Assembly: GCA_003219695.1 (NCBI GenBank)
Contig: QHQA01000154.1
Location: forward strand, 17,831 to 81,830
Reading direction: 5' to 3'
Source of the DNA: Verrucomicrobiota bacterium
Lineage (GTDB): Bacteria > Verrucomicrobiota > Verrucomicrobiia > Chthoniobacterales > UBA10450
DNA length: 64,000 nt
Both the position numbers and the translations under genes were made by a program. Shown here one piece after another: positions 43,967 to 46,234 of this stretch. The notes beneath the pieces are model-generated. The model searched no databases. It had not been told where the DNA came from and saw only the letters and a list, made by a program, of their open reading frames with translations. Numbering within the stretch: position 1 is the first letter of the stretch; each line of letters opens with the position of its first letter.

Positions 43967-46234
43967 ATGGAATTTGAAAAGAACACGATGCTCTTTGGCG
44001 TTGATCCCACGCCGAGGATCGTCGCGATCGAGCTGGGCGAAACGGGCACCGTGCGCGTGCATCGCCGGGAAACAGACGGATCCACGATGACCGATGTTGA
44101 ACTCTTCCATCCATTTGTTTGGTGCGACGCGGACGTTGTCGATCTCGGCATTGACGCAGAAAAGCTGGCGGGTGATCTCAAATACGGCTGGCTAGTGACG
44201 GTCGATAGCTGGAAAGAACTGATCGCGCTGCGCAACGGATTGAAAAATGCCGGGCGCGATTTCTTCGCGTTTACCGATCCGGTGCAGCATTATCTAACCG
44301 CCACGGGTCGCACATTGTTCAAAGATCTGGCGTTCGAGGAATTAAAGCGAATGCAAGTCGAGGCCCTTGTAGTCGCGACAAGTCGGGATGACCCCGGCCG
44401 GGACGATCACATCATGAGCATCGCGCTCTCGGATAACACCGGGTGGGAAGAGCTGCTTGTCGTCGATCCAGACAATATCGAGGAATCCGAGCGCGCCTCG
44501 CTCAAGCGCCTGACGAGCTTGATCAGCGAGCGCGATCCGGACGTCATCGAAGGCCACAATTTATTTCGTGTGCACCTGCCGCTGATCGTTGCACGCGCGA
44601 AGAAACTGAAGACCAAACTCGATTGGGGACGCAGCGGGGGTTTTCTTCGCTCCCGTCCTTCGCGGCTCCAGATCGCTGAGAAGACTATCGATTACCCTAA
44701 GTTCTCCATCGATGGCCGGCACTTTGTCGATACGTTCTTGCTCGCGCAATTCTATGATGTCGGGATGCGTTCCCTGGCGGGATTCGAACGGATCGATGTC
44801 GCCCGGCATTTCGATCTGTGCGAGGACGAAGAAATCTCCATGCTCAGTGGCAAAGAACTGCAGCGGGCGTATCTGGAAAATTCGCAAACATTCCGCCGCC
44901 GCGCTCTATGCGGTGTGCGGGAGACACGAGCGCTATCGGATCTGCTCAGTCCGAGTTACTTCATTCAGGCGCAAATTTTTCCTTACAATTATCAGGACGT
45001 GATCGTCCGCGGGAACGCCACGCGCATCAATGCGGTGTTCCTGCGCGAATATTTCCGGCAACGCCATTCCATTACCGAAGTGCCGATGCCACAGGCGTTC
45101 GAAGGCGGTTACACCGACATCTTTTTCACGGGCGTGGCGCGCAACGTGTGGCATTGCGACATCGCCTCGCTTTATCCGTCCATCATGCTGCAGTTCGAAT
45201 GCTTTCCCGCGACCGATCAATTGCAAATCTTTCGGCATTTGCTCACTGATCTGCGCGCATTTCGATTAGAAGCGAAGGCAAAAATGCGGGCCGAACAGGA
45301 TCCGGCCAGGCAACATCATCTCCAGGCACTGCAAAACACGTTTAAAATTCTGCTCAACAGTTTCTACGGATATCTTGGCTTCGCGCAGGGACATTTCGCC
45401 GATTTCGATGCTGCCGCGCGCGTGACGCAAATCGGGCGCGATTTGCTCAAAAAGATGATCGACTGGCTCAACGCGCAGGGCGCGCAGGTCATCGAGGTCG
45501 ATACCGACGGGATTTATTTCGTGCCGCCAGCTGTAGCCGGCGGCGGTGACGCCGGCAACCGAGGAGGACGTGGCCGCGCAAAAGACCAGCCGGGGTCAAC
45601 GCCCCCGGCTACAACGATCGAGCGTTTGCAGCAAGGGCTCGCCGAAGAACTGCCAGCGGGCATCGATGTCGAAATCGACGAGCAATTCGATGCTATGTTC
45701 AGTTACAAAGCTAAGAACTACGCGTTGCTCACCAAAGATGGCGAGGTCGTCATCAAGGGTGGGGCGCTTAAGTCGCGGGGGTTGGAAAAATTCCAGCGCG
45801 TTTTCCTCGAGGAAATGATCAAGCTCATTATGGAAGCAAGACCGGAGGCGATTGCTGATCTTCGGAACGAGTTCGAACGAAAGATCCGGAACCGCGAGTG
45901 GAAGATCGACATGCTAATGAAAACCGACACGCTCCAAGATTCGCTCGACAAATATCGGGCGAAGATCGCTGGCTCCGCGCGCAACCGCGCCGCCGCATAC
46001 GAGCTTGCCTTGGCGAGCGGCCGCAATTACAAACCCGGCGATCAGATCAGTTACTACATCAAAGCTACGCCAAAAAAAGTTCCCGCCTACGAAGCCGCCA
46101 AACCCGCCAACGAATTCGACCCCGAGAACCGCGACGAAAACGTCGATTATTACGTTGCTAAGCTTGATGAATTGGTAAAGAAGTTCGGGAACATGAAGCA
46201 ATCTGCTGCGAAACAGGAAACCCTCGCCTTGTAA
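43967..46234 (+). CDS. Family B DNA polymerase
   Basis: Motif A CDIASLYPSIML, motif B FKILLNSFYGYLG, motif C VIEVDTDGIYFV; C-terminal KSRGLEKFQRVFLEEMIKLI; start could be 43928, 43967 or 43988. Confidence 0.93.
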   Translation: MEFEKNTMLFGVDPTPRIVAIELGETGTVRVHRRETDGSTMTDVELFHPFVWCDADVVDLGIDAEKLAGDLKYGWLVTVDSWKELIALRNGLKNAGRDFFAFTDPVQHYLTATGRTLFKDLAFEELKRMQVEALVVATSRDDPGRDDHIMSIALSDNTGWEELLVVDPDNIEESERASLKRLTSLISERDPDVIEGHNLFRVHLPLIVARAKKLKTKLDWGRSGGFLRSRPSRLQIAEKTIDYPKFSIDGRHFVDTFLLAQFYDVGMRSLAGFERIDVARHFDLCEDEEISMLSGKELQRAYLENSQTFRRRALCGVRETRALSDLLSPSYFIQAQIFPYNYQDVIVRGNATRINAVFLREYFRQRHSITEVPMPQAFEGGYTDIFFTGVARNVWHCDIASLYPSIMLQFECFPATDQLQIFRHLLTDLRAFRLEAKAKMRAEQDPARQHHLQALQNTFKILLNSFYGYLGFAQGHFADFDAAARVTQIGRDLLKKMIDWLNAQGAQVIEVDTDGIYFVPPAVAGGGDAGNRGGRGRAKDQPGSTPPATTIERLQQGLAEELPAGIDVEIDEQFDAMFSYKAKNYALLTKDGEVVIKGGALKSRGLEKFQRVFLEEMIKLIMEARPEAIADLRNEFERKIRNREWKIDMLMKTDTLQDSLDKYRAKIAGSARNRAAAYELALASGRNYKPGDQISYYIKATPKKVPAYEAAKPANEFDPENRDENVDYYVAKLDELVKKFGNMKQSAAKQETLAL
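45532..45613. repeat. Palindromic element family P6 in frame inside PolB
   Basis: TGTAGCCGGCGGCGGTGACGCCGGCAACC...CCGGGGTCAACGCCCCCGGCTACA encoding VAGGGDAGNRGGRGRAKDQPGSTPPAT directly after DTDGIYFVPP. Confidence 0.9.

What the first reader, a model, noticed from the sequence alone, without database searches (positions are those of the whole stretch)
45532..45613. Palindromic element inserted in frame directly behind the catalytic motif C of a family-B DNA polymerase
TGTAGCCGGCGGCGGTGACGCCGG...CCGGGGTCAACGCCCCCGGCTACA lies right after VIEVDTDGIYFVPP and adds about 27 residues (VAGGGDAGNRGGRGRAKDQPGSTPPAT) before ERLQQGLAEELPAG. The same nucleotide family (P6) occurs in moaE (10471) and rarA (58629), in the same reading frame each time. 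Of the three forward frames, one meets TAG in TGTAG and one meets TGA in CGGTGA; only the GTA-GCC-GGC frame is open, and that is the one used in all three. This resembles Rickettsia palindromic elements, which also turn into peptide within genes.
Basis: partly seen in the sequence, partly recalled or inferred. Interest (0 to 1): 0.82.

Follow-up and report, generated by a model that had tools for sequence, protein, structure and literature searches.

The report
Mobile palindromes translated inside polymerase genes
A short mobile DNA palindrome (a REPIN, the kind normally found between genes) sits in frame inside a DNA polymerase gene of a soil Verrucomicrobium, and in its relatives unrelated palindrome families have landed, still readable as protein, in that same loop, as also happens in RarA and DnaE2 (and less clearly UvrB), while the transposase itself sits in frame inside RecG.

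Summary
Confirmed and extended. Window 45532-45613 is a REPIN: two head-to-head GTAG-tagged REP hairpins inserted in frame into PolB (43928-46234). The closest orthologue (93-95% identical) lacks it, and near-identical PolB proteins carrying it come from other contigs. The family is dispersed through the genome. Of 78 sampled copies, 31 lie inside open genes (UvrA, UvrB, PcrA-like, AlaRS, IleRS, MnmA and others). The forward arm is always in the GTA frame (27/27), because TAG or TGA closes the other two; the reverse arm uses all three frames.

The PolB loop is a hotspot: about half of the orthologues carry an insert there. At least three unrelated REPIN families, each dispersed in its host genome, plus several singletons, occur. 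The tree needs at least 12 filled/empty changes. RarA and DnaE2 (two sites) behave alike; UvrB has a comparable but more variable linker.

Unexpectedly, whole RAYT transposases lie in frame inside RecG, CarB and MetH. The RecG copy carries the same terminal repeats as the DnaE2 inserts in this window.

Best reading: RAYT-mobilised elements that survive only where a protein loop tolerates them and the frame stays open. Intragenic GTAG REPs are known (Opitutus); the multi-family hotspots and in-frame RAYTs look new.

The parts
43928..46234 (+). family-B (archaeal-type) DNA polymerase, 768 aa, host gene
   Evidence: Pfam DNA_pol_B 96.5 bits and DNA_pol_B_exo1; best PDB relative 4flt, E 1.6e-26
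45532..45613 (+). REPIN (family A / P6) inserted in frame in the loop after motif C
45533..45556 (+). forward REP arm: GTAG + CCGGCG-GCGGTGA-CGCCGG hairpin, read VAGGGDAG
45557..45588 (+). spacer between the two REPs
45589..45613 (-). reverse REP arm (GTAGCCGGGGGCGTTGACCCCGG on the minus strand), read PGSTPPAT on the plus strand
10471..10525 (+). second REPIN of the family; read as the C-terminal tail of moaE at the moaE/pgsA junction
58629..58653 (+). single REP of the family inside rarA (57934-59148), read SVAGGGDPG; site used by several insert families in relatives
5307..8375 (+). error-prone DNA polymerase DnaE2, carrying two in-frame inserts of another palindrome family
   Evidence: NCBIfam NF004225 1117 bits
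5447..5577 (+). in-frame palindromic insert 1 in dnaE2 (GSTGCQPVVCG...CAPQKAEN), with terminal repeats like those of the RAYT element in recG
7802..7940 (+). in-frame palindromic insert 2 in dnaE2 (GSTGCQPVASG...CAPQKAE); right end nearly identical (about 2 differences in 47 nt, read by eye) to the right end of the recG RAYT element

Best explanation
The palindrome is a REPIN: a non-autonomous pair of inverted GTAG-REPs mobilised in trans by a RAYT (TnpA_REP) single-strand HUH transposase. RAYT is thought to join the element behind a CT or TT dinucleotide, without target duplication. In PolB the only CT in the loop after motif C is in the last Pro codon (CCT), so the element joins as CCT|GTA (often with a further codon ending in CT, as GCT or TCT) and is read V-A-G-G. 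Insertions in the other two frames hit TAG or TGA inside the forward REP and are lost. Insertions elsewhere in the protein, or of the wrong length, are also lost. What remains are in-frame copies in the one or two surface loops per protein that tolerate 20-50 extra residues; such loops are therefore refilled again and again by whatever REPIN family is active. Shown here: element, dispersal, clean insertion, frame use, recurrent occupancy by unrelated families, association with RAYTs. Inferred: RAYT catalysis, translation of the peptide, near-neutral effect on the polymerase.
For: Two GTAG hairpins head to head; 37 of 78 sampled copies are such doublets; REPs flank RAYT-like genes at C106 and C112; 115 of 118 arms are preceded by CT or TT, background 0.047 and 0.067; clean insertion against L113; forward arm 27/27 in GTA frame, reverse arm 13/9/1 over three frames; the PolB site takes 32 inserts among 68 sequences, few elsewhere internally; families A, B and C are each dispersed in their own host genomes; at least 12 filled/empty and 22 family changes on the careful PolB tree, family A in 4 places; same pattern in RarA with the same CCT|GTAG junction and at two sites of DnaE2; insert loosely constrained, pN/pS 0.61 against 0.09 for the PolB core; insert modelled as a low-confidence loop between the motif-C strand and the next helix.
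Against: No transposition or expression data. The RAYT beside family-A REPs lacks a start codon and the one beside family-B REPs has lost its HUH motif, so the cognate enzymes may be dead in this genome and the PolB copy old: its nearest full-length genomic copy is only 78% identical. Some sharing between species may be recombination (P0005 and P0010 look chimeric at the insert). L101 shares spacer similarity with the window copy although distant in the tree. The structure model is poor overall (mean pLDDT 60).
Confidence: 0.85

Rival explanations
1. Few old insertions spread by recombination: the loop was filled once or a few times, and filled and empty alleles were later swapped between species by homologous exchange of a short PolB tract.
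For: Family A occurs in many 83-90% identical homologues with a recognisably related spacer; P0005 and P0010 join a divergent N-terminal half to a C-terminal half identical to the window's.
Against: Unrelated families (A, B, C) cannot derive from one insert; third-position identity does not rise in the flanks next to shared inserts in most pairs; empty linkers are homologous in sequence and of constant length across the tree.
Confidence: 0.2
2. Adaptive insertion: the peptide next to motif C tunes the polymerase (fidelity, processivity or partner binding), and DNA repair genes are hit because altered repair is favoured, as proposed by Di Nocera et al. 2013.
For: Hosts include PolB, DnaE2, RarA, UvrA, UvrB, a PcrA/UvrD helicase and RecG; about half of PolB orthologues are filled.
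Against: Sequence, length and family of the insert vary freely; pN/pS 0.61; tRNA ligases, HutH, YchF, GcvP and MnmA are hit too; no formal enrichment test was made.
Confidence: 0.1
3. Native hypervariable linker that merely resembles a repeat.
For: The UvrB site really is a variable linker with or without REPs.
Against: The PolB insert is a full REPIN at the DNA level, with dispersed relatives; empty orthologues have a conserved 7-aa linker.
Confidence: 0.02
4. Membership of the Rickettsia palindromic elements.
For: Same outcome: in-frame peptide, stop-free frame, DNA repair hosts (PMC3733652 cites RPEs in R. conorii genes).
Against: The element is GTAG-tagged and linked to RAYTs; intragenic R. 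conorii RPE-4/6 are CGTC-type repeats without a dedicated transposase (PMC3733652).
Confidence: 0.02

Closest known systems
GTAG-tagged REPs / REPINs mobilised by RAYT (Bertels & Rainey 2011, PMC3116915; Di Nocera et al. 2013, PMC3733652)
   Same: GTAG tag, imperfect hairpin, head-to-head doublets with spacer, dispersed families, linkage to RAYT genes
   Different: About 40% of the sampled copies lie inside open genes here, whereas in P. fluorescens SBW25 only 14 of 1067 top 16-mers overlap genes (PMC3116915)
Intragenic GTAG REPs of Opitutus terrae, also a Verrucomicrobium (PMC3733652)
   Same: REP dimers inside uvrA and other DNA repair genes, adding 20-30 residues; one case (recB of two Xanthomonas) of different REPs at about the same site
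   Different: Here one loop per protein is shown to be refilled by several unrelated families over dozens of species, with mapped empty alleles and a tree; PolB, RarA and DnaE2 hotspots and in-frame RAYTs are not described in the text read
Rickettsia palindromic elements (RPE)
   Same: Palindromes translated in frame within conserved proteins
   Different: Other sequence class, no RAYT; Rickettsia only
IS200/IS605 elements and derived MITEs
   Same: HUH transposase, insertion without target duplication, autonomous and internally deleted forms
   Different: Here both the transposase element (in recG) and its deleted relatives (in dnaE2) are read through in frame
Inteins and other in-frame parasites
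   Same: Conserved DNA-metabolism hosts, recurrent insertion at fixed sites
   Different: 27-aa insert without splicing motifs; nothing suggests removal

Membership tests
GTAG REP / REPIN | GTAG tetranucleotide 5' of an imperfect palindrome | tested here: met
GTAG REP / REPIN | many dispersed copies in the genome | tested here: met
   45 similarity hits and 64 exact pattern hits
GTAG REP / REPIN | inverted doublets with spacer as the unit | tested here: met
   37 of 78 sampled elements are head-to-head pairs, 40 single
GTAG REP / REPIN | REPs flank a RAYT gene in the same genome | tested here: met
   family A at C106, family B at C112; NF047646 106.8 bits for the C106 one, which is 5' truncated
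GTAG REP / REPIN | mostly extragenic | tested here: inconclusive
   47 of 78 sampled copies not in an open gene, 31 in one; sample incomplete and classified by codon usage
GTAG REP / REPIN | cleavage and joining at CT by the cognate RAYT | not testable with these tools
   consistent: CT or TT before 115 of 118 arms
Rickettsia palindromic element | intragenic RPE-4/6 of R. conorii are CGTC-tagged, without RAYT (PMC3733652) | tested here: not met
   GTAG tag and RAYT link
Intein | splicing domain with conserved terminal nucleophiles | tested here: not met
   27-aa insert, no such residues

The most novel reading that the evidence does not exclude
In this lineage (Candidatus Udaeobacter and relatives) the RAYT/REPIN system has taken up residence inside protein-coding genes: the transposase is made as an internal domain of RecG, CarB and MetH, and its deleted derivatives are tolerated peptides of polymerases and repair proteins. 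The elements have become selected for being readable through, making them translated mobile elements that persist like inteins but without splicing.
Probability: 0.3. Interest if true: 0.9.

Novelty: new variant of a known kind. Interest (0 to 1): 0.74.

Why it matters
REPs are by name extragenic, and how mobile repeats become protein has rested mostly on Rickettsia. Here dozens of related genomes give matched empty and filled alleles for several conserved genes, so tolerance of loops, insertion rate, frame selection and the fate of element-derived peptides can be measured directly. The in-frame RAYTs in RecG, CarB and MetH raise a testable question: can a transposase work while built into a housekeeping enzyme?

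Tried and rejected
A loose REP pattern gave false positives; a stem-based score replaced it. PolB families F (L118) and G (L088) could not be shown to be dispersed repeats: F has only 3 hits in its genome and G was not tested, so they are not counted as proven REPINs. My first tree labelled L116 wrongly as family B; corrected. The AlphaFold model is too weak (pLDDT 60) for distances to the active site, so no fold search was run. Homologue frames with stops (L230, L233 and others) were left alone. The first alignment attempt failed on a wrong frame. The two RAYTs nearest to family A and B REPs look degraded, so I dropped the simple claim that they are active now.

Full report
Observation. The palindrome is at 45532-45613 and is read in frame within a 768-aa family-B DNA polymerase, ORF 43928-46234. 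The polymerase is of the archaeal type (Pfam DNA_pol_B and DNA_pol_B_exo1; nearest solved relatives are archaeal PolB such as 4flt), with motif A CDIASLYPSI and motif C DTDG present. The 27 extra residues VAGGGDAGNRGGRGRAKDQPGSTPPAT follow VDTDGIYFVPPA. As single-stranded DNA the element folds at -28.2 kcal/mol, z -3.8. Nearest orthologue L113 is nearly identical around the site except for the insert, and near-identical proteins P0002-P0004, reported from other contigs, carry it. An assembly error is therefore unlikely.

What it is. Each half is GTAG followed by an imperfect hairpin (GTAG-CCGGGG-GCGGTGA-CCCCGG type), the two halves head to head: a REPIN. The genome (a MAG of 3.1 Mb in 224 contigs; the nearest named PolB and RecG records are Candidatus Udaeobacter and Chthoniobacterales) has 64 exact copies of the REP core and 375 with up to two mismatches against 213 for the reversed pattern. 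In a stem-scored sample of 78 elements, 37 are head-to-head pairs and 40 single. In 115 of 118 arms GTAG is preceded by CT or TT (the T at -1 is partly favoured by the search pattern, the position before it is not). RAYT transposases are linked: a RAYT domain at C106 lies between family-A REPs, and one at C112 lies between family-B REPINs. Both look damaged: the first has no start codon although it matches NF047646 at 106.8 bits, the second has lost its HUH motif.

Frame. Of the 78 sampled elements, 31 lie in genes that are coding on both flanks and open through the element (codon-usage classifier; ten hosts confirmed by NCBIfam: UvrB, UvrA, PcrA, AlaRS, IleRS, MnmA with two inserts, YchF, HutH, NrdJ, GcvP). 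The forward arm is in the GTA frame in 27 of 27 cases; the reverse arm is used in all three frames (13, 9, 1). This is what its stop codons predict: TGTAG carries TAG, and GGTGA carries TGA, in the other two forward frames, while the reverse arm has none. It is a filter, not evidence of design. Joining behind a CCT or GCT codon gives the GTA frame at once. The moaE copy is a C-terminal extension, not an internal insert.

Hotspot. In 60 PolB orthologues (the window's included) the site is empty in 31 and filled in 29. Empty alleles have a homologous linker of nearly constant length, so empty is most likely ancestral. Filled alleles hold unrelated elements: family A (as here), family B (VEAGVSPAK...AADTAATT; REP GTAGNGGCAGNCGTGTCGNCTGC, 30 hits against 1 control in this genome, and 28-29 matches in two host genomes), family C (11 and 19 matches in two host genomes), and singletons D to G, of which F could not be shown to be dispersed and the others were not tested. 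They are joined at nearly the same place and, where a GTAG end is recognisable, read in the same frame. On the careful tree the supported branches force at least 12 filled/empty changes; all states need 22; family A occurs in four separate places. Among 68 sequences the site takes 32 internal insertions of 9 or more residues and few fall elsewhere in the body of the protein. The insert is weakly constrained (pN/pS 0.61 against 0.09 for the core, 11 pairs). A low-confidence model puts it in a disordered loop between the motif-C strand and the next helix.

Not PolB alone. RarA has one such site (TTPP|IHFT), filled in 8 of 27 relatives, with the same CCT|GTAG junction in several. UvrB has one hypervariable linker with and without REPs. 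DnaE2, in this same window (5307-8375), has two sites; most relatives carry an insert at each, of several families. This points to the protein loop as the main selector.

The transposase in frame. A search for RAYTs found HUH domains inside long intact ORFs: RecG (aa 409-549 of 907), CarB (aa 484-586 of the 803 aa read) and MetH (aa 414-553). The RecG case is common: at least a dozen of 60 relatives and essentially all of the 120 best database hits, with the HUH motif readable in 112 and a Y..RNP motif in 108 (the ranking favours proteins with the domain); other relatives have plain RecG of about 700-760 aa. Between close relatives L296 and L314 RecG pS is 0.15 but RAYT pS 0.75, so different RAYTs occupy one site; in other pairs RAYT and RecG diverge together, with mean RAYT pN/pS 0.30, which suggests purifying selection. 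The RecG element's terminal repeats match those of the two inserts in DnaE2: the right end differs at about 2 of 47 nt from window 7893-7939. This looks like an autonomous element in recG and internally deleted relatives in dnaE2, both read in frame.

Mechanism. Best supported: RAYT-mediated joining of single-stranded REPINs behind CT, followed by selection that keeps only in-frame copies of suitable length in tolerant loops (confidence 0.85). Catalysis, translation and neutrality are inferred. Recombination between species may have spread some alleles. Di Nocera et al. (PMC3733652) already reported intragenic GTAG REPs, most in the Verrucomicrobium Opitutus terrae and often in repair genes, and one case of different REPs at about the same recB site, so the kind is known. 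TnpA_REP cleavage at CT is from PMC8266576. I found no paper on multi-family hotspots in PolB, RarA or DnaE2, or on in-frame RAYTs in RecG, CarB or MetH; the library is incomplete, so novelty there is provisional.

Noticed in passing
L132:259-2979 (G000 contig C8), also L296-L311: A whole RAYT transposase with intact HUH motif sits in frame inside RecG helicase; at least a dozen of 60 relatives and essentially all of the top 120 database hits share it, others have plain RecG; close relatives carry different RAYTs at the same site.
   Followed up: partly
L130:1-2409 (C82) and L129:1-3048 minus strand (C84): RAYT domains in frame inside carbamoyl-phosphate synthase large subunit (oligomerisation domain) and methionine synthase MetH (between domains).
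   Followed up: partly
window 5307-8375: Error-prone DnaE2 polymerase with two in-frame palindromic inserts of a second family; both sites are filled by several different families in relatives.
   Followed up: partly
L136:1249-2406 (C100) and L131:1102-1914 (C113): RAYT domain in one ORF with a cytochrome c domain (386 aa), and a 271-aa ORF with a RAYT domain; not analysed further.
   Followed up: no
L027:1-2751 minus strand (UvrA): UvrA carries further repeat-like peptides (CHFERSREIPSRNQ...SPATAGSGRNDG and VASLRGKLAAGR) besides the family-A REPIN.
   Followed up: no
window 1565-1704, 17307-17431, 60869-61037: Another repeat family (CATTCGTCATTCG units, long inverted copies 83% complementary) of unknown nature.
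   Followed up: no
P0005 and P0010 (PolB homologues): Divergent N-terminal half joined to a C-terminal half identical to the window's PolB from about the insert on: recombination or chimeric assembly.
   Followed up: no
L080 PolB, about aa 147: A minor second insertion site in PolB (SFEAEDAGAGDAVAGIGDPGPADE), again a family-A REP peptide.
   Followed up: no
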